From NCBI GenBank assembly GCA_017409785.1, contig JAFQSD010000002.1:288597-352596 (forward strand): 64,000 bases of DNA, in the 5' to 3' direction. Below the pieces are notes generated by a model. It ran no database searches and was not told the origin of the DNA. It saw only the letters and a list, made by a program, of their open reading frames with translations. The stretch's first letter is position 1. Every line of letters begins with the position of its first letter. Below are positions 1,038 to 53,136 of this stretch, piece after piece. The position numbers were made by a program, and so were the translations under genes. Source of the stretch: Bacilli bacterium. GTDB taxonomy: Bacteria > Bacillota_I > Bacilli_A > RF39 > UBA660.

Positions 1038-3353
1038 TTATCTACCACAACACTCAGGTGCTGTAATTTTCTCCATTGGAACTCCCTCAAACTCTTTACG
1101 TCCACATCTAGGACATACATCATTGATAACTCCAACATAACCACAAACTGGGTCTCTATCTACTGGATGGTTAACTGCTCCATAACCAATTCCTACTTCT
1201 TTCATTGTTCTAATGATACTTTCGAATGCATCAACGTTAGCAGCAACATCTCCATCAACTTCGATATAAGAAATATGTCCACCATTTGTGAATTCATGAT
1301 ATGGTGCCTCAGTATGTAACTTGTCACTAATACTAATATTATAGTAAACAGGTACATGGAATGAGTTTGTATAATATTCTCTATCTGTAACTCCCTTAAT
1401 CTTTCCATAAATAGCTCTATCAATATTTGTAAATCTACCAGATAATCCTTCAGCTGGTGTAGCTAAACATGTAAAGTTTAAGTTATATTTCTTAGCATTT
1501 TCATCAATTCTATCTCTCATGAATTTAATGATTTCAATTCCTAATTTTTGACTCTTAGGATCTTCACCATGATGTTTACCAGTTAATGCTTTTAAACATT
1601 CTGCTAAACCAATAAATCCAGTTGATAATGAACCATGTTTCCAAACTTTTCTTAATCTATCTGTTGGTTTTAATTTTTCACCATTTGTCCATACACCTTG
1701 TCCTAGTAAGAATGGGAAGTTATAACAACGTTTATTACATTGTACTTCAAATCTTTCTAGTAATTGGTCACGAACTTTATCAATAATTTCTCCAAGTTCT
1801 TCATAGAACCCCTTCATATCTGCTTTATCTCTTTCACCTAAAGCAATACCATATTTAATACCAAGTCTTACTAAGTTAATAGTTGTAAATGAAAGATTTC
1901 CTCTTCCAGTAACTACTTGATTATCTGGAGAAGTAACATCTGCTACAACTCTTGTACGACAACCCATGTAAGAAACTTCTGTATTAACATCTCCTTCTTT
2001 ATAGAATGCTAAGTTAAATGGTGCATCTATAAATGCAAAGTTAGGGAAAAGTCTCTTAGCAGAAACTTCACATGCTAATCTGAATAAATCATAGTTCTTA
2101 TCTTCTTTATTAAAGTTAACTCCTTCTTTTACTTTAAAGATTGATACTGGGAAGATTGGTGTTTCACCATTTCCAAGTCCTCTTTCAGTTGCAAGTAAGA
2201 AGTTCTTAATTACCATTCTTCCTTCCGGAGAAGTATCAGTACCAAAGTTTACTGATGAGAATGGTACTTGAGCACCAGCTCTAGAATGCATTGTATTTAA
2301 ATTATGAATAAATGCTTCCATAGTTTGTTGAGTTGCTCTATCAGTTTTTTGTAAAGCTTTTTCATATCCTTTAACAAAAATTTCTTGAATTCTTTCACTA
2401 CCTTTTTGGTAATCACTAAATTCTTCTACATTTACTTCAATTGATTCTAATTTATCAATTTCACGAATAATTCTATCTACATTAACTACTGGTAAGAAAC
2501 CATCTAAATCTAAGAAATCATAAATTGTTTGTTTAAATTGTTTCTTAAATGTTTTTAAAACTCCAGGAGCTAAATAATAATCAAGTGCTGGTATTGCTTG
2601 TCCACCATGTTGATCATTTTGGTTTGCTTGAACAACAATTGCTGCAAGTGAACCATATGTTGAAATATCTTGTGGTGGTCTTACATATCCATGTCCAGTA
2701 TCAAATCCATTTTTAAATAATCTTTCTAGATTAATTTGACAACATGTTGTAGTTCCCATTGCTAGGAAGTCCATATCATGAATATGAATTGTACCATTAT
2801 CATGCATTGTTGCATATTCTGGTTTCATTAAATATGCTTTAGCAAACTCTTTAGAAACTGTAGCACCATATTGTAACATTGTACCCATTGGACTATTTCC
2901 ATCGATATTTGCATTTTCTCTCTTAGAATCTTCTTCATTAGCTGATTTTAATCCTAAGTTTTCTAATGATTTTAAAAATTTATGAGTCTTCTTATCTTCA
3001 AAGAATAATTGACGAGATTGATTTCTTCTTTCTCTATATTCAGAAAATGATTTATAAACATCTTCATATCCTTTATTTGATAATTCTTCTTCTATTAAAT
3101 CTTGAATTTCTTCAATCTTAATTTTATCTGTATCTTTAGAAAGTTTTTCAAGTCTTTTTAAAACAGCTTGATAAACTTTTTGTACATCCTTAGTAGTATA
3201 TTTTCTTTCTTTATCATCCTCATCAGTATCTACTTCAACACTATCGAACCCTTTTTTAATAGATAAAGCGATTTTTGTTTCATCAAAATCTACTTTCTTT
3301 CCATTTCTCTTAATTACAGTTAAATTTTCTAACTTGTCTACTACTTCATTCAT
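1038..3353 (-). CDS. nrdD: Class III ribonucleoside-triphosphate reductase, large part lacking the glycyl-radical tail
   Basis: A 771-residue anaerobic ribonucleotide reductase that makes deoxyribonucleotides from NTPs. An ATP-cone allosteric domain occupies roughly residues 11-105 (VIKRNGKKVDFDETKI). Active-site cysteines are visible in TTTCCQINL (about residue 200) and YMGCRTRVV (about 462). The C-terminus is a Cys-rich zinc-binding tail (VCGYVG...CPRCGRK...ECCGR). It ends with a TAA immediately after that tail, just where RxxGYL would normally follow, and the radical glycine is instead encoded by the next ORF (840-1004). It is the first gene of a three-gene operon. The start ATG 3353 has a GAGGT ribosome-binding site. 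The second NrdD in this window (4995-7145) is unsplit, so the split is specific to this locus. Confidence 0.95.
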   Translation of the reverse strand: MNEVVDKLENLTVIKRNGKKVDFDETKIALSIKKGFDSVEVDTDEDDKERKYTTKDVQKVYQAVLKRLEKLSKDTDKIKIEEIQDLIEEELSNKGYEDVYKSFSEYRERRNQSRQLFFEDKKTHKFLKSLENLGLKSANEEDSKRENANIDGNSPMGTMLQYGATVSKEFAKAYLMKPEYATMHDNGTIHIHDMDFLAMGTTTCCQINLERLFKNGFDTGHGYVRPPQDISTYGSLAAIVVQANQNDQHGGQAIPALDYYLAPGVLKTFKKQFKQTIYDFLDLDGFLPVVNVDRIIREIDKLESIEVNVEEFSDYQKGSERIQEIFVKGYEKALQKTDRATQQTMEAFIHNLNTMHSRAGAQVPFSSVNFGTDTSPEGRMVIKNFLLATERGLGNGETPIFPVSIFKVKEGVNFNKEDKNYDLFRLACEVSAKRLFPNFAFIDAPFNLAFYKEGDVNTEVSYMGCRTRVVADVTSPDNQVVTGRGNLSFTTINLVRLGIKYGIALGERDKADMKGFYEELGEIIDKVRDQLLERFEVQCNKRCYNFPFLLGQGVWTNGEKLKPTDRLRKVWKHGSLSTGFIGLAECLKALTGKHHGEDPKSQKLGIEIIKFMRDRIDENAKKYNLNFTCLATPAEGLSGRFTNIDRAIYGKIKGVTDREYYTNSFHVPVYYNISISDKLHTEAPYHEFTNGGHISYIEVDGDVAANVDAFESIIRTMKEVGIGYGAVNHPVDRDPVCGYVGVINDVCPRCGRKEFEGVPMEKITAPECCGR

Positions 3354-3679
3354 AAATTTACCTCACATATTTCTTTCTCTTTCTAATTTCATTTTAAAGA
3401 GAAATTTTTACTTTTACAACTACTATTTTTACTATTTTTTTACCCCATTTATTCTTTTCGTTGATATATAAGGAAAACATCAAAAAATTATTTTTGTTCG
3501 ATTTACGACAATTGACAAAATTATACAATTAGAAAAAATGATTTTTCCTAATTTTTAAATTTTTACATTTTGTTATTAACAGAATTTCCTTATTTTTCAA
3601 CAAATTACAAGTTTGCATTTTTTCTTTTTTTAGAAAAATAAGAAAATTCATTTTTTTATTTTTTTGATTTTTTTGTTTT
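3354..3679. other. AT-rich intergenic region with nrdD1 leader
   Basis: This gap holds the promoter of the nrdD1 operon near its left end and long T-rich tracts (about 3590-3680) downstream of dut. The tracts include a weak TTTTTCT/AGAAAAA-type hairpin that may end the dut transcript. I see no credible gene. A partial ORF readable on the minus strand (3529-3726) is low-complexity and overlaps dut out of frame. Confidence 0.6.
3391..3419 (-). promoter_or_regulatory. Probable promoter of the nrdD1-glycyl peptide-nrdG1 operon
   Basis: On the minus strand, TTGTAA (3414-3419) and TAAAAT (3391-3396) are separated by exactly 17 bp, matching a sigma-A-type -35/-10 pair. They lie about 40 bp upstream of the nrdD start. 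No second copy of the palindrome seen near nrdD2 was found here. Confidence 0.5.
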
Positions 3680-4135
3680 TTATTTATCTGTAGAACCAAA
3701 TCCACCAGTACGTGTACCAGTAGCATTATCGTTATCTACAACTAAATATTTTTGGAACATTACTTGACCAATAACATCTCCTTTTTTAACTTCAATATCA
3801 TGGTCACTACAATTAAAATATGCAAAGTAAAAATGTCCATCATTATTTTCATTTTCATAATAGTCGGCATCTATTAATCCAACACTATTTGCTAGTATAA
3901 ATCCTTTTTTAGGACCACTACTACGATTTAATAATAAATAACATTCATCATCCATACAATAAGCTTTTAATCCTGTCGGAATAAGTGTAGGCTTACAGCC
4001 TGGCGTAAACATTGGAATAATAATGTCCTCTGCAGCCTCAACATCATATCCAGCAGAACGTGCCGTTTTTCTAACAGGTAAATTTATCCCCTTATCTTCC
4101 CATCCTTTAGCAACTTCAAATCCTCTTTGTCTCAT
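3680..4135 (-). CDS. dut: dUTP diphosphatase
   Basis: About 151 residues of trimeric dUTPase, which hydrolyses dUTP to dUMP and pyrophosphate, keeping uracil out of DNA and supplying dTMP synthesis. Visible motifs are SAGYDVEAAED (motif 1), RSSGPKKG (motif 2), NSVGLIDADYY (motif 3) and the C-terminal RTGGFGST arm (motif 5). A longer reading from 4156 is possible, but the start at 4135 is preferred. There the ATG overlaps the TGA of nrdG2 (ATGA) and is preceded by GGGAGAAG at proper spacing, whereas 4156 has no ribosome-binding site. It is the last gene of the nrdD2-orf-nrdG2-dut nucleotide operon. Confidence 0.93.
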   Translation of the reverse strand: MRQRGFEVAKGWEDKGINLPVRKTARSAGYDVEAAEDIIIPMFTPGCKPTLIPTGLKAYCMDDECYLLLNRSSGPKKGFILANSVGLIDADYYENENNDGHFYFAYFNCSDHDIEVKKGDVIGQVMFQKYLVVDNDNATGTRTGGFGSTDK

Positions 4136-4677
4136 ACTTCTTCTCCCTCTAACCATTTATTATTATCTATATATAATACTTTCTTATCTAATTCTAAACT
4201 CTTCTTAACATCAATAATATTTTGATTACTACTACCTACATATTGTAGTTTTTCTAAAGCAAGTCTAAGCACAAACTTCCCATCAAGTAATACATCAATA
4301 TTATTAATAATATCTTTCAAATTATTATCTTTATCCATTTGAGGAATTAACTCTTCCCAAATAAAGCCTGTATAACACCAAATTGTTTTATTTGGATATT
4401 TTTCTTTTACTTCTTTAACTAAACTAGCAATTACCTCACGACTTTCAGGAAATAACGGATCTCCTCCTGACAAAGTAAGTCCACTACACCAGTCATGATC
4501 TAGTTCATCGAATATTTCTTTCTTAGCAGCATCATCAAATATAAGTCCATCATCTTTATTCCATGTGACAGCATTATGACATCCAGGACATTTATGACTA
4601 CAACCACTTGTCCAAAGAACTACTCTTAACCCTTCTCCATTCAGCATATCTGCTTTAGTTATATTATGATATTTCAT
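4132..4677 (-). CDS. nrdG: Anaerobic ribonucleotide reductase activase NrdG (second copy)
   Basis: A 181-residue radical-SAM activase for the second NrdD. The cluster motif is CSHKCPGC (Cys26, Cys30, Cys33), followed by TLSGGDPLFPESR and CYTGFIWEEL. It is clearly diverged from the first NrdG, as expected if each activase serves its own reductase. It overlaps its upstream neighbour by four bases and ends in TGA overlapping the dut start (ATGA). This shows that TGA is a stop codon in this organism. Confidence 0.95.
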   Translation of the reverse strand: MKYHNITKADMLNGEGLRVVLWTSGCSHKCPGCHNAVTWNKDDGLIFDDAAKKEIFDELDHDWCSGLTLSGGDPLFPESREVIASLVKEVKEKYPNKTIWCYTGFIWEELIPQMDKDNNLKDIINNIDVLLDGKFVLRLALEKLQYVGSSNQNIIDVKKSLELDKKVLYIDNNKWLEGEEV

Positions 4678-4994
4678 AATCTACTTACCTCGCCCTTACT
4701 ATAATAAAGGACTGGTTTATTTAAAAATAAAGCATGATCTCTTTGAGCCTTTGTAGAATTCCCCATATAACCATCTACATCAACCACTACAACAATATCA
4801 CTATGATTTATTTTTAATTTTGTAGCAACGTCAATAATCTCTTTTGCTTTCTTACCACATCCAGGTTTATCACCAGATTGATTATAAACAAGTGGAGAAA
4901 ATATTAAATAACCTTTTAAAGTTAAACTTTCTTCTAATTCTCTAAACGTACTTTCAAATTTTGTACTTCCAATTAAACATACTACAGAATACAT
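4674..4994 (-). CDS. Nucleoside 2-deoxyribosyltransferase-like protein
   Basis: 106 residues with a Rossmann-like pattern: VVCLIGSTKF at the N-terminus, LKGYLIFSPLVY, DIVVVVDVDGYMGNSTKAQRDHA and LNKPVLYY. The GSTKF opening and the GYMGNSTxxxxxHA block resemble the small nucleoside 2-deoxyribosyltransferase/DUF4406-type proteins found in phage and bacterial nucleotide clusters. These move deoxyribose between bases or hydrolyse nucleotides. The assignment to the fold is fairly safe; the reaction is inferred from the location between nrdD2 and nrdG2. Its ATG follows the nrdD2 TAA directly and its TGA overlaps the nrdG2 start. Confidence 0.65.
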   Translation of the reverse strand: MYSVVCLIGSTKFESTFRELEESLTLKGYLIFSPLVYNQSGDKPGCGKKAKEIIDVATKLKINHSDIVVVVDVDGYMGNSTKAQRDHALFLNKPVLYYSKGEVSRL

Positions 4995-41833: not shown

Positions 41834-42817
41834 CTATCTATAAGCTTCACTAACTAATTTAGCATGAACTACTTTTCTACCCTTATTATCCTCAGTACAA
41901 GTAGATAAAGTAATGATTTTATCTTTCGCACTAACTTCAACATTTAATGCAACAGAACTCTTACTCTTTAAATTATTATAGAAAGTTAATCTACTATTAT
42001 CTGATGTAAAACTAGTTTGTAAATAATAACTATTAGGATCACTATAATAAATAGAAAATATTTCATACGTATAGATTTTAGATTCTGTAAGAACTAAAAT
42101 CTTATGGCTTGAATTATTAAGCCATTCCTTAGTAAAAAGATTAGATACACTACCAAATGCAGTTTTATTTAATAAATTATGTCCATAAAATATTGTATTA
42201 TCATCATTCATAGTACTATCATTACGATAATCAATAAATGGCCATCCATGTGATGTTTTTTTCTTATAAATATTACGCATCAAATAATAGTCATTATCTA
42301 CAGCTTGCACAACTGGATAATTAATATTAGTACCATCAACTATTAACCAAGCTTTAACTTCATTATTCACAAGTTTCAATTCATTAAAATTAATTTCACT
42401 AATACTCTTATTTCCATATATTTTATAAAGATTTGTTTCTAACGGTTGCGTAGGAGTAGCATCTTGCATCACTTCTTCAGTATTTTCTTCTTTGCTTGCA
42501 TCAATCTCAACTTTTTCTTCAATCATCTCATCAAGTTTAACAACTTCATTAGAATCATAGAAAACAACATAAATTGTCGCAATCAACAAAACACTCGCAA
42601 ATAAAATTAAAAAGAAATACTCCGGTTTTTCCTGTCTATCCTTATAATGGTCAACTAACTTTTTTGACCATTTCATCTTAGGAAAAATTAGCTTTAATAA
42701 ACACGCAATTAAATAAAAGTAAAAATAAAATCCTCTAGAAAAAACTAAACACAAAAAGTAAAATCCTTTATGTGTTTGATTATATATATATTTAAAAAAC
42801 TTACCAATTTTTTTCAT
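41834..42817 (-). CDS. Class B sortase
   Basis: 327 residues. An N-terminal amphipathic and membrane region (helix about 70-90, FFLILFASVLLIATIYVVFY) precedes an extracellular sortase domain. Catalytic His is in NTIFYGHNL (about residue 210), Cys in ITLSTCTED (about 302) and Arg in KGRKVV (about 309). NINYPVVQAVDNDYYLMRN and WPFIDYRN are class B signatures. Sortase B enzymes attach proteins or assemble pili on the cell wall. No NPQTN-type substrate gene is adjacent, so its target is elsewhere. Its start is 9 bp from the upstream small membrane-protein gene, suggesting co-transcription. Confidence 0.92.
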   Translation of the reverse strand: MKKIGKFFKYIYNQTHKGFYFLCLVFSRGFYFYFYLIACLLKLIFPKMKWSKKLVDHYKDRQEKPEYFFLILFASVLLIATIYVVFYDSNEVVKLDEMIEEKVEIDASKEENTEEVMQDATPTQPLETNLYKIYGNKSISEINFNELKLVNNEVKAWLIVDGTNINYPVVQAVDNDYYLMRNIYKKKTSHGWPFIDYRNDSTMNDDNTIFYGHNLLNKTAFGSVSNLFTKEWLNNSSHKILVLTESKIYTYEIFSIYYSDPNSYYLQTSFTSDNSRLTFYNNLKSKSSVALNVEVSAKDKIITLSTCTEDNKGRKVVHAKLVSEAYR

Positions 42818-42825
42818 AAAATCAC

Positions 42826-43170
42826 CTAAATAATTTCTTCATCGTAATCAGTAATTAAAATTGGTTTATCAAAATACATTGTATTTTCTAACATTTCAAC
42901 TTCTACCGGTCTCATAACTAAAGTTTTTTCCAAACTTAAAACTTCAACGTCTTCTTCAAGTTGAATCTTTGACATTTTAATTGTACGCTCTAAACTATCT
43001 TCACTAACTTCTGTAGAGTTTGATTTTACTAATTTAATTTTTTCTGGTAATACATTAAGATCTAACACTACAAAAGAATTTGTTTTCTTTTCTTCATAAA
43101 CAGTAATAATAATCCCTGTTATAAATGAAACAATTAATATAGAAAAAAATACAATTAATACTACTGTCAT
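42826..43170 (-). CDS. Small membrane protein upstream of sortase B
   Basis: 114 residues. One N-terminal membrane helix (about 2-24, TVVLIVFFSILIVSFITGIII) is followed by an acidic hydrophilic tail. No family recognised. The start at 43170 is chosen because GAGGG lies 7 nt upstream; an upstream in-frame codon at 43212 lacks a site. The 8-bp gap to the sortase gene suggests translation from one message. Confidence 0.6.
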   Translation of the reverse strand: MTVVLIVFFSILIVSFITGIIITVYEEKKTNSFVVLDLNVLPEKIKLVKSNSTEVSEDSLERTIKMSKIQLEEDVEVLSLEKTLVMRPVEVEMLENTMYFDKPILITDYDEEII

Positions 43171-43221
43171 ATATAATCCCTCTATTCTAAGATTATTATA
43201 CAACATCATCACAAAAAAGAA

Positions 43222-50665: not shown

Positions 50666-50692
50666 AAAATTTGACACTCTTAGTCAAATTTT
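50666..50692 (-). terminator. Terminator after the adhesin/sortase operon
   Basis: AAAATTTGAC-(7 nt)-GTCAAATTTT followed by a T run on the minus strand, overlapping the end of the 50680 gene. Confidence 0.8.
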
Positions 50693-51252
50693 CTCTTATA
50701 AAATTGATATAATTCATAGAATAAAGTAATCAATAACCAACCAAAAAATAATAGATTACTAATCTGAACAATAGATAAAATTATATCATTTTGATATAAA
50801 CTAACTGTATCATAAATATCAACACCACTATAAACACATAGTACTATAAATGACATAAATAAAAAATATAAAATTGAAAAGCATACATAATTAATTATCC
50901 TTTTCACGTCACTCATCTTTTTACTGAATAAAGTTTTAATCATTAAACCAGTTATAAAAACAAAAATTAAGAAATAAGCAAAAGTAGAAGGAAAATAAAT
51001 ATAATTAAGTATTGTTTTTACAAAACCATTTATACATAATTGCACATAGTCACTATAACTAAGTAGTATTCCTAAGGCAAAACCTATATAAACTCCAATA
51101 GCAGCAAAATTAATATATTTATTTTTTAATTTTACATTTATTAATAAAATACATAATAAAAGAAGGCTCATTATGAACATACCTATAGGTAAGAAAGAGG
51201 AAAACATGTATTTAAAAACTGTTCCAAATTTCTCAAACAAAGACATATTCAT
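50680..51252 (-). CDS. Multi-pass membrane protein in the sortase operon
   Basis: 190 residues with about five membrane helices and almost no soluble domain (GMFIMSLLLLCILLI, FAAIGVYIGFALGILL, FAYFLIFVFITGLMI, FSILYFLFMSFIVLCVY, LLFFGWLLITLFY). No family recognised. It lies 12 bp downstream of the sortase gene with AGGAGGTG before ATG, so it belongs to the adhesin-sortase operon and may help localise or assemble the sortase complex. That role is inferred from position alone. Confidence 0.65.
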   Translation of the reverse strand: MNMSLFEKFGTVFKYMFSSFLPIGMFIMSLLLLCILLINVKLKNKYINFAAIGVYIGFALGILLSYSDYVQLCINGFVKTILNYIYFPSTFAYFLIFVFITGLMIKTLFSKKMSDVKRIINYVCFSILYFLFMSFIVLCVYSGVDIYDTVSLYQNDIILSIVQISNLLFFGWLLITLFYELYQFYKRKFD

Positions 51253-51263
51253 AGTATCACCTC

Positions 51264-51932
51264 CTAAACTAATTCTAAAATATATACAGTTTGTGATTTA
51301 TCATTATTTTTAGTACAAGTAATAAGCGTAAGCGTTGTTTTATCATAACTTCTAACTATCTTTACTCTTCCTGTTTTAGGAACATCATAAATATTTACAA
51401 TTTGATATGTATACTTATTACCATTGTATGTAACATACGCCTTATCACCTATTTTTAAAATATATAAATAAGCAAAATATGATACTGCAGCATCACCTGA
51501 ATGTGCCATTAATATTAAATTACCATTAACAACATCAGGCATATTAGAACCTTCAACTAAAGTAACATTATACTGAATATCATTATATTTAGAATCAAGA
51601 TTATAAAACCCTCTTTTTAATCCAACTTTTGGTATTTCTAAAACACCCAAATATTTACTATAATCAATTACTGGTGCTTGCACCACTTGCTTATTATCTT
51701 CTGGAAGATTATTCGTTATCGGAACATCAGTTGTTGCCTCTTCATCATCAGCAACAACAAGTCCCGCATTAAGTTTTAAATCCATATCTGTAAAAACATC
51801 ATCTTTCATTCTTCCAAGATATTCAAAACTAAGAGTACATATTCCAACAAATACAAGTAAAGAACCAAGTAATAATATTTGGCTCTTTTTTATCTTTTTT
51901 CTATTCACTTGTTTTTGGTTTTGCATTTGCAT
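51264..51932 (-). CDS. Sortase paired with the thioester surface protein
   Basis: 222 residues. An N-terminal membrane helix (about 16-36) precedes a sortase domain. IPKVGLKRGFYNLDSKYND is typical of small class D-like enzymes; catalytic His is in LILMAHSG and Cys in LTLITCTKNN. The catalytic Arg, normally 7-9 residues after Cys, is not visible: the sequence reads CTKNNDKSQTVYI. It overlaps the 3' end of the TQXA protein gene by about 32 bp, so the two are coupled and that protein is its likely substrate. The start is uncertain; ATG 51932 is used. Confidence 0.85.
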   Translation of the reverse strand: MQMQNQKQVNRKKIKKSQILLLGSLLVFVGICTLSFEYLGRMKDDVFTDMDLKLNAGLVVADDEEATTDVPITNNLPEDNKQVVQAPVIDYSKYLGVLEIPKVGLKRGFYNLDSKYNDIQYNVTLVEGSNMPDVVNGNLILMAHSGDAAVSYFAYLYILKIGDKAYVTYNGNKYTYQIVNIYDVPKTGRVKIVRSYDKTTLTLITCTKNNDKSQTVYILELV

Positions 51933-53136
51933 AAACAATACCTACACCACTTAGTAAAAGTATTAATCCCATAAAGTAAATAGTTTGTGCAACACCCATT
52001 CCTGTATCTGGAATTTTTGGTGTGTAATCAAGTTGGATATCTAACGGACCACTAATTTCTTTATTAACAATTTTTACATTTGCAACTTTTTGATATGTAC
52101 CAGAAACATATTTATTAGCACCATATACATCAAACTTACCATTAATAGATAATTCAATCTTTTTAGATTTATCAGTAACTTTATCAACTGGTATTCTTAC
52201 ATAGAATTTTGAAGTTGGTGACATATTTGTAATATCATCATATACATTTCCACTTTCATCAACTAAAATTGTTCCCTCAGGAGCATTTACTAAGTTTACT
52301 GAATACCCCTTATATGTACTAACAGAATTTTCTTTATAATTAACACTTACTAAATCAGTTTGATAATACTTATTATCATTAGTAATTGAAATATTTTTTC
52401 CATATTCAGGAACAGCACTTGCATCTTGTTCATTCTTTACTTCTTTAGATTTAGCAATTAATTCATTTATCTTATAAAGTTCATATAATGGAGTTGTACT
52501 ATCTACAACATATTCAACATTACTACCTGAACCTCTATATAATTTATTAACTTTTCTAACATTATCAGCAAATTTCTTAGGATTAGCAGTTGGCACACTA
52601 TTAAGTGTTTGATTCTTTGGATCACCAGTTTCATATAAATATGTCCAAATTGCTGATTGAGTTAACCATACTTGTACATTTTCAGGTAAATCATTTCCAG
52701 AAGCATCTTTAAAACTTACATTTGGATACATCTTAGACATCAAATACATTAATCCCTTATCTGTAATTTCTTCACCTGGTGTATATTCTTTATCAACTAC
52801 ATAAGTAACATCATACTCAATACAGAAAATAGGAATTCCCTCATCTTTAGTATAAAATCCTAAAATAGGTAAAATTCCATCAACACCTTCTACTGTCGAA
52901 CCAGTAAGTTTAGATACTGTTTCATCTCCTTGTGCTGAAATAAATTTTTCAGGAAGTGCAGCTGTAGGATCAATTGCAAAAGATATTTGATTAAGTCCAA
53001 ATACCATTAATCCAATAATTCCAACAAATGCTACAACAACAAGCGCAGTCATTGAACCTTTATCATTTAATAATCGTTTCAATAAAGATTGTTTTTTTGG
53101 ACTCTTACTTTCAGAATCCATATAGATTTTCTCCAT
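51901..53136 (-). CDS. Thioester-domain (TQXA) surface protein with IPDTG sorting signal
   Basis: 411 residues. A long signal region (hydrophobic about 30-53) is followed by a thioester domain: Cys105 in PIFCIEYD and Gln160 in WLTQSAIWTY are the two residues that form the internal thioester in TQXA domains of Gram-positive adhesins. A central region with VWLTQ and YLYETG and a ~100-residue Ig-like domain follow. The C-terminus has IPDTG (375-379), a hydrophobic helix and a short charged tail: a sortase signal in which Leu is replaced by Ile. It is the likely substrate of the adjacent sortase. The start could be 53136 or ATG 53121, the latter with a better ribosome-binding site (GGAG). Confidence 0.87.
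   Translation of the reverse strand: MEKIYMDSESKSPKKQSLLKRLLNDKGSMTALVVVAFVGIIGLMVFGLNQISFAIDPTAALPEKFISAQGDETVSKLTGSTVEGVDGILPILGFYTKDEGIPIFCIEYDVTYVVDKEYTPGEEITDKGLMYLMSKMYPNVSFKDASGNDLPENVQVWLTQSAIWTYLYETGDPKNQTLNSVPTANPKKFADNVRKVNKLYRGSGSNVEYVVDSTTPLYELYKINELIAKSKEVKNEQDASAVPEYGKNISITNDNKYYQTDLVSVNYKENSVSTYKGYSVNLVNAPEGTILVDESGNVYDDITNMSPTSKFYVRIPVDKVTDKSKKIELSINGKFDVYGANKYVSGTYQKVANVKIVNKEISGPLDIQLDYTPKIPDTGMGVAQTIYFMGLILLLSGVGIVYANAKPKTSE

What the first reader, a model, noticed from the sequence alone, without database searches (positions are those of the whole stretch)
50680..53136. Thioester-domain adhesin with IPDTG signal coupled to its own sortase and a multi-pass partner
The surface protein has Cys105 and Gln160 (LTQSAIW) for a thioester bond that can attach covalently to host or polymer amines, and a C-terminal IPDTG motif. 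The overlapping sortase and the following multi-pass membrane protein complete a compact attachment system. Such thioester adhesins are known mostly from streptococci and other pathogens; a gut commensal module with a dedicated sortase is of interest.
Basis: partly seen in the sequence, partly recalled or inferred. Interest (0 to 1): 0.5.

Follow-up and report, generated by a model that had tools for sequence, protein, structure and literature searches.

The report
Thioester protein, arginine-less sortase, membrane partner
A gut bacterium carries a three-gene kit that appears to fix a small, chemically reactive surface protein to the cell with an anchoring enzyme that has glutamine where known enzymes of its kind have a key arginine, and the same kit recurs in many related gut bacteria.

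Summary
The three genes are real: a thioester-domain (TED) surface protein with an IPDTG signal (51901-53136), an overlapping sortase (51264-51938) and a five-helix membrane protein (50680-51252), all on the minus strand. One residue claim is wrong: Gln160 lies in the TQxxPhiW motif, which in known TEDs is not the bond partner. The better candidate is Gln349 (55 of 55 aligned proteins), and the model matches class II TEDs (BaTIE, Z 16.4). The TED fills nearly the whole ectodomain, with no stalk.

The larger finding is the sortase. His and Cys are kept, but the triad Arg is Gln216: Gln in 81 of 81 sequences of one set and 80 of 83 of another, partly overlapping set (2 His, 1 Tyr, no Arg), against Arg in 23 of 23 readable sortases outside the family. 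The membrane protein matches no family searched and lies within 300 bp of such a sortase in 42 of 45 cases. The genome's three TED genes each sit beside a Gln-type sortase. I read it as a lineage-specific covalent attachment module with a His-Cys-Gln sortase. Thioester formation and sortase activity are untested.

The parts
51901..53136 (-). TED surface protein, 411 aa: signal peptide, class II-like thioester domain (about 62-373), IPDTG, transmembrane segment
   Evidence: PF08341 28.8 bits; model mean pLDDT 84.2; class II TEDs are the best fold matches
52822..52824 (-). Cys105 codon (FCIE), presumed thioester Cys
   Evidence: 75 of 75 aligned proteins; motif [YFL]C-hydrophobic-hydrophilic
52090..52092 (-). 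Gln349 codon (YQKVA), proposed thioester partner
   Evidence: 55 of 55; pairs with the bond Gln of TIEpLS20 in a low-confidence alignment
52657..52659 (-). Gln160 codon in TQSAIW (TQXXPhiW motif), not the bond partner
   Evidence: 75 of 75; motif role from PMC6194298 passages
52000..52014 (-). IPDTG sorting motif (residues 375-379)
   Evidence: xPxT[GSAN] in the last 45 residues of 68 of 74 relatives
51264..51938 (-). Sortase, His-Cys-Gln type; TTG start as listed, the ATG at 51932 likelier
   Evidence: PF04203 56.7 bits; model pLDDT 96-98 over the C-terminal strands; start choice by comparison with relatives
51291..51293 (-). Gln216 codon at the catalytic-Arg position
   Evidence: 81 of 81; 80 of 83 with no Arg; end-of-range matches to SrtE1 and S. 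pyogenes SrtA
51315..51317 (-). Cys208 codon, nucleophile; His146 is at 51501-51503
   Evidence: His and Cys 83 of 83 and 81 of 81
51901..51938 (-). Overlap of the TED 3' end with the sortase 5' end
   Evidence: +1-frame overlap in 70 of 74 related loci
50680..51252 (-). Five-TM membrane protein, 190 aa, of no known family
   Evidence: segments; 0 of 31 members match Pfam; no PDB match; 42 of 45 family matches within 300 bp of the sortase

Best explanation
A lineage-specific covalent attachment module. The TED protein is exported by its signal peptide and forms an internal Cys105-Gln349 thioester that can bond to amines of a target (inferred). The co-encoded sortase is expected to cleave IPDT-G and join the protein to the cell wall (inferred). 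This sortase keeps His146, Cys208 and the preceding Thr207 but carries Gln216 where sortases have the triad Arg (shown by sequence, supported by the model); Gln most likely takes over the hydrogen bonding to the substrate backbone attributed to that Arg (inferred). The five-TM protein most likely helps the sortase or its substrate in the membrane (inferred from linkage only). Because the class II TED ends a few residues before IPDTG, the reactive head would sit close to the wall, not on a stalk.
For: TED: PF08341 above cut-off; Foldseek best match BaTIE at 2.5e-12; VIA Z 16.4 to 6fwv over 253 residues and Z 15.1 to 6fwy over 259; Cys105 75 of 75; Gln349 55 of 55. Unit: TED-sortase-membrane order in 74 of 80 loci, +1 overlap in 70 of 74, two paralogous TED-sortase pairs in the genome, one with a homologous membrane protein. 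Sortase: fold Z 17.6 to S. suis SrtC1; His and Cys invariant and Gln216 in 81 of 81, 80 of 83; Thr207 invariant in 64. Position: model residue 224 matches 337 of SrtE1 and 224 of S. pyogenes SrtA, whose Args are 329 and 216. Control: Arg in 23 of 23 readable out-of-family sortases. Mechanism: PMC13104033 passages argue the Arg binds substrate rather than catalysing, and name an engineered variant with Ser there.
Against: No biochemical data; the organism is a metagenome-type lineage. The Gln-Arg equivalence rests on end-of-range inference, not on superposed coordinates, and the Cys105-Gln349 distance could not be measured. The alignment to TIEpLS20 is weak (probability 3.8%, E 0.011). The sorting signal scores just under the LPXTG model's cut-off (15.2 vs 15.9 bits) and its tail has few positive charges. 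29 of 123 sortase places have no TED match within 4 kb and 45 of 140 TED matches have no such sortase within 4 kb (contig ends contribute). Three sortases have His or Tyr instead of Gln. The membrane protein is absent from about half of the family set (41 of 83 loci have it), so it is not always needed.
Confidence: 0.72

Rival explanations
1. The sortase is degenerate: without the Arg it is weak or inactive and acts as a binding scaffold, while another sortase of the genome anchors the TED protein.
For: The triad Arg is missing. The genome has a sortase with a clear Arg (L013).
Against: His and Cys are invariant in 83 of 83 and 81 of 81 and Thr207 in 64 aligned; a dead enzyme would not be expected to keep them over so many genera. 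The one replacement is Gln in nearly every sequence rather than random residues. Each of the three TED genes has its own such sortase.
Confidence: 0.12
2. A minimal pilus-like system: the sortase is of class C descent and polymerises TED proteins.
For: The best class model is class C (57.1 bits); the top structure is a class C sortase; the nearest Arg-bearing sequences in the tree are class C-like.
Against: Class C score far below its cut-off of 160. No second sorting-signal gene adjoins. Only an N-terminal TM is predicted. I did not test for a pilin lysine motif.
Confidence: 0.1
3. The stalkless TED is not an adhesin for host surfaces but a wall-proximal staple that bonds amines of wall polymers, matrix or neighbouring cells.
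For: TED fold spans 63-373 and IPDTG starts at 375. The length is kept: 49 of 50 relatives with the shared N-terminal motif are 378-439 aa. Modules B and C carry additional repeat regions before their signals.
Against: No target is known; a thin wall could still expose the head. This is compatible with the main explanation and differs only in the target.
Confidence: 0.3

Closest known systems
Class II TED proteins (BaTIE 6FWV, EfmTIE86 6FWY, SaTIE 6FX6; TIEpLS20)
   Same: Cys motif, TQXXPhiW motif, a late Gln in a PhiQzetaPhiPhi-like motif, fold
   Different: No CnaB stalk in module A; own Gln-type sortase and five-TM partner. TIEpLS20 has no sorting signal and needs no sortase
Class C sortases (S. 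suis SrtC1 3RE9, GBS SrtC1)
   Same: Fold, His and Cys; best class model
   Different: Gln for Arg; below the class cut-off; only an N-terminal TM predicted
Streptococcal FCT pilus islands with Cpa (from memory)
   Same: TED adhesin beside a dedicated sortase
   Different: No pilin gene adjoining here; no five-TM partner in those islands as I recall them
Engineered SrtA-beta (Ser at R197; PMC13104033 passages)
   Same: A sortase reported to work without the Arg
   Different: Engineered, different residue and substrate; here a natural replacement fixed across a family

Membership tests
Thioester domain (PF08341), class II | Cys in [YFL]C-hydrophobic-hydrophilic motif | tested here: met
   FCIE at 104-107; Cys 75 of 75
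Thioester domain (PF08341), class II | TQXXPhiW motif | tested here: met
   TQSAIW; Gln 75 of 75; Trp 55 of 55; the Thr varies (52 of 75)
Thioester domain (PF08341), class II | Bonding Gln in a late PhiQzetaPhiPhi motif | tested here: met
   YQKVA, Gln349 55 of 55. The weak motif is met by sequence only; the bond itself was not seen
Thioester domain (PF08341), class II | Class II fold (TED head with inserted beta-sandwich) | tested here: met
   Z 16.4 and 15.1 to class II structures over 253 and 259 residues; class I SfbI Z 9.4
Thioester domain (PF08341), class II | A thioester bond actually forms | not testable with these tools
   needs mass spectrometry
Sortase superfamily (PF04203) | Sortase fold and family score | tested here: met
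   56.7 vs 26.6 bits; Z 14.5-17.6 to 50 sortase entries
Classical His-Cys-Arg sortase | Catalytic His and Cys | tested here: met
   83 of 83 and 81 of 81
Classical His-Cys-Arg sortase | Triad Arg at the start of strand beta8 | tested here: not met
   Gln216; no Arg in 83 or in 81
Named sortase classes C, D, E (NCBIfam) | Class model cut-off | tested here: not met
   57.1 of 160, 33.2 of 165, 27.7 of 160 bits; the general model TIGR01076 is passed, 51.8 of 39.35
LPXTG-type sorting signal (TIGR01167) | Model cut-off | tested here: inconclusive
   15.2 vs 15.9 bits; motif and TM present
Sortase-assembled pilus | Pilin gene(s) with sorting signal beside the sortase | tested here: not met
   the flanking genes are a pyrimidine-nucleoside phosphorylase and a 181-aa protein with no match

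The most novel reading that the evidence does not exclude
A natural sortase class with a His-Cys-Gln active site, fixed across one family of gut Bacilli. It works as a membrane complex with a five-TM subunit that recognises the substrate's transmembrane signal, and it displays a stalkless TED as a wall-proximal covalent staple. It would show that the sortase Arg is replaceable in nature.
Probability: 0.35. Interest if true: 0.75.

Novelty: new variant of a known kind. Interest (0 to 1): 0.6.

Why it matters
Arg is conventionally the third member of the sortase catalytic triad, and whether it is catalytic or only binds substrate is debated (PMC13104033 passages). A whole natural branch with Gln at that place makes the question testable with wild-type enzymes, each paired with its own substrate. 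The module is also a conserved covalent-attachment device in abundant, little-studied gut bacteria, with a membrane partner of no known family.

Tried and rejected
Gln160 as bond partner: rejected on the published motif roles. Chance sorting-signal match: rejected, the motif recurs in 68 of 74 relatives. Plasmid or viral origin: tblastn of the sortase found nothing in plasmids at 1e-5, and the viral-contig scan confirmed no relative (short exact patterns, so insensitive). Promoter and terminator scans were no better than shuffles for promoters (17 found, 23.9 expected). Sequence search of the TED against solved structures gave nothing convincing (best 0.039, Cpa); fold comparison did. Direct profile comparison with TIEpLS20 aligned only residues 101-139, including Cys105 (E 0.012); a looser run reached Gln349 but with low confidence. 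Idea that a GxGxxYxN transmembrane motif marks partner-bearing modules: 12 of 30 TED proteins with the partner against 0 of 34 without, but these are mostly one clade, so not independent. The tree puts the 83 Gln-group sortases together with weak support (0.33) and all 41 partner-bearing loci inside one 43-tip clade (0.84).

Sampling and dropped rows: flanks were fetched for 80 of the 120 non-own sortase places (the choice was by rank and by contig position, and G004:C58, with stops inside, was left out). Alignment A5 holds 54 of 74 TED proteins plus the window's; 20 longer, more divergent or duplicate ones were left out. A4 holds 63 of 80 sortases plus the window's. The named and unnamed sets overlap: at least 8 contigs have identical lengths. 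L186 and L191 appear to be duplicates. For the Arg control 26 out-of-family loci were returned; 3 (L244, L249, L251) could not be read by my patterns.

Literature: five searches for sortases lacking the Arg or with Gln there listed no paper that I recognised as describing one, and the RF39/thioester search listed no paper on TED modules in this group; subscription papers are mostly not held. Papers: PMC8092201 passages and section 9; PMC6194298, PMC13104033, PMC8361268, PMC5148588 and PMC10868615 passages only; all others search listings only.

Full report
What is there. On the minus strand, 53136 down to 50680 encodes three proteins: a 411-aa surface protein P0001, a 224-aa sortase P0002 and a 190-aa membrane protein P0003. 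P0001 matches the thioester domain PF08341 above its cut-off, P0002 matches Sortase PF04203 above its cut-off, and P0003 has no significant match. A pyrimidine-nucleoside phosphorylase gene lies upstream and a 181-aa protein of no known family downstream. The sortase ORF is listed with a TTG start. In relatives the first ATG sits inside the end of the TED gene, so the ATG at 51932 is the likelier start here. The overlap is in the +1 frame in 70 of 74 related loci, which suggests translational coupling (inference).

The thioester. Published TED work says the bonding Cys lies in [YFL]C-hydrophobic-hydrophilic and the bonding Gln in a weak PhiQzetaPhiPhi motif. TQXXPhiW is a third motif, whose Gln and Trp are not essential for the bond (PMC6194298, passages). 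In P0001 the Cys motif is FCIE and TQSAIW is the third motif. Residue Gln349, in YQKVA, is the only other Gln in the invariant list of alignment A5 and is kept in 55 of 55. The predicted structure (mean pLDDT 84.2) has class II TEDs as its best matches: Foldseek E 2.5e-12 to BaTIE, VIA Z 16.4 (rmsd 4.3, 253 aligned) to 6fwv and 15.1 (rmsd 4.9, 259 aligned) to 6fwy, against 9.4 for class I SfbI. In a low-confidence alignment to the B. subtilis TED protein TIEpLS20 (probability 3.8%, E 0.011), Cys105 pairs with its Cys57 and Gln349 with its Gln245. The record is 11 residues shorter than the published 778-residue protein, so these are the published Cys68, whose C68S mutant fails in conjugation, and Gln256, the modelled partner. 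I could not measure distances in the model.

No stalk. The TED match spans residues 63-373 and IPDTG begins at 375. In named relatives that share the N-terminal M-E-K-I-Y motif (50 of 74) the length is 378-439 aa in 49 and 474 in one. The other two TED proteins of the genome are 520 and 471 aa and carry repeat-like regions, which I take for CnaB-type stalks, before VPDTA and VPNTS.

The sortase. Its predicted fold is a sortase fold: Z 17.6 to S. suis SrtC1 (rmsd 2.4, 127 aligned). His146 and Cys208 are invariant. At the position of the triad Arg stands Gln216: 81 of 81 in the named set plus P0002, and 80 of 83 in the family set, with two His, one Tyr and no Arg. The sets overlap. The position is supported three ways. 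Relative to the strand it opens, Gln216 aligns with the Arg of the class B-like sortase of the same genome. In S. pyogenes SrtA the mutated catalytic Cys is C208 and the Arg is R216, the same spacing as Cys208-Gln216. The structural match to SrtE1 ends at model 224 and chain 337, which puts Gln216 at its R329 if the last residues are ungapped. As control, of 29 sortase loci newly fetched in a class-wide search, 26 lie outside the family; the 23 that could be read all have Arg, and the 3 inside the family have Gln. Scores for the named classes C, D and E are far below their cut-offs.

Why it may still work. Recent work argues that the Arg (R197 in S. aureus SrtA) binds the substrate backbone rather than stabilising the oxyanion, which is done by the Thr before the Cys and a backbone amide after the His, and mentions an engineered sortase with Ser at that place (PMC13104033, passages). 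In SrtE1 the Arg donates a hydrogen bond to a substrate carbonyl (PMC5148588, passages). Here the Thr before the Cys is invariant in the 64 sequences of A4, and Gln can donate a hydrogen bond (inference). I also recall, without a call, a study in which citrulline replaced this Arg with activity kept. The P2 residue of the signals is Asp in 49 and Asn in 9 of the 68 with a clear motif.

The membrane partner. Alignment-averaged hydropathy gives five segments. No member of 31 matches Pfam at 0.01, P0003 matches nothing in NCBIfam at E 1, and there is no PDB match at E 1. In 98 family genomes 45 matches were found and 42 lie within 300 bp of a Gln-type sortase. It is present in 41 of 83 family-set loci, all within one clade of 43 tips (support 0.84). 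It is therefore a later or partial addition to the sortase group, not universal. Its role is inferred from linkage alone.

Spread. In 98 genomes of the family 58 have a sortase match at 1e-10. In samples of the phylum (7 of 295) and the order (128 of 193) at 1e-20, every listed genome with a match belongs to this one family. Named relatives are uncultured Bacilli, mostly from goat, rabbit ('Lapin'), rumen and chicken samples by their titles, including Candidatus Faecimonas and Candidatus Onthousia. From memory these belong to order RF39 in GTDB; I did not test that. Published RF39 genomes are predicted to keep peptidoglycan in most species, and the missing srtA/B sortases are reported for sister orders rather than RF39 (PMC10868615, passages).

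Against the tight-linkage view. In family genomes 95 of 140 TED matches lie within 4 kb of such a sortase and 45 do not; 94 of 123 sortases have a TED match within 4 kb. Fragmented contigs explain some of this but not necessarily all.

A natural fusion. In genome G301 one 984-aa frame joins a protein with a TED-like YCLE motif, repeats, VPNTG and a hydrophobic segment to a Gln-type sortase. My TED model did not match its N-terminus, and because the two genes normally overlap out of frame, a single-base change or assembly error could create such a fusion. It is suggestive only.

Verdict.

Noticed in passing
window 41834-42817, minus strand (L013:2431-3414): A second sortase in the window, class B-like with a clear Arg (GRKVVHAKL), beside a small membrane protein (42826-43212) and a serine-tRNA ligase-like gene.
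   Followed up: partly
G000:C2 (L014:3219-4028; L015:3646-4479): Two further sortases of the genome also seem to lack the Arg: Tyr and Lys or Glu at the aligned place. In a third (L016:3362-4192) the Arg is shifted by one residue.
   Followed up: no
window 53136 downwards (P0001 residues 1-6): A conserved MEKIYM-like motif at the extreme N-terminus of the TED precursor, found in 50 of 74 named relatives.
   Followed up: partly
G000:C2:about 253300 (L053) and L015:5309-5611: Other sorting-signal proteins near other sortases: a 989-aa frame with IPNTG about 3.5 kb from the L014 sortase, and a small NPNTF protein near the L015 sortase.
   Followed up: no
L265 (G301:C17), 1917-4868: One 984-aa frame joins a TED-like, repeat-bearing VPNTG protein to a Gln-type sortase; it may be a real fusion or a frame error.
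   Followed up: partly
L167, 1307-5035: Three TED genes in a row upstream of one sortase-membrane pair; L174 has two.
   Followed up: no
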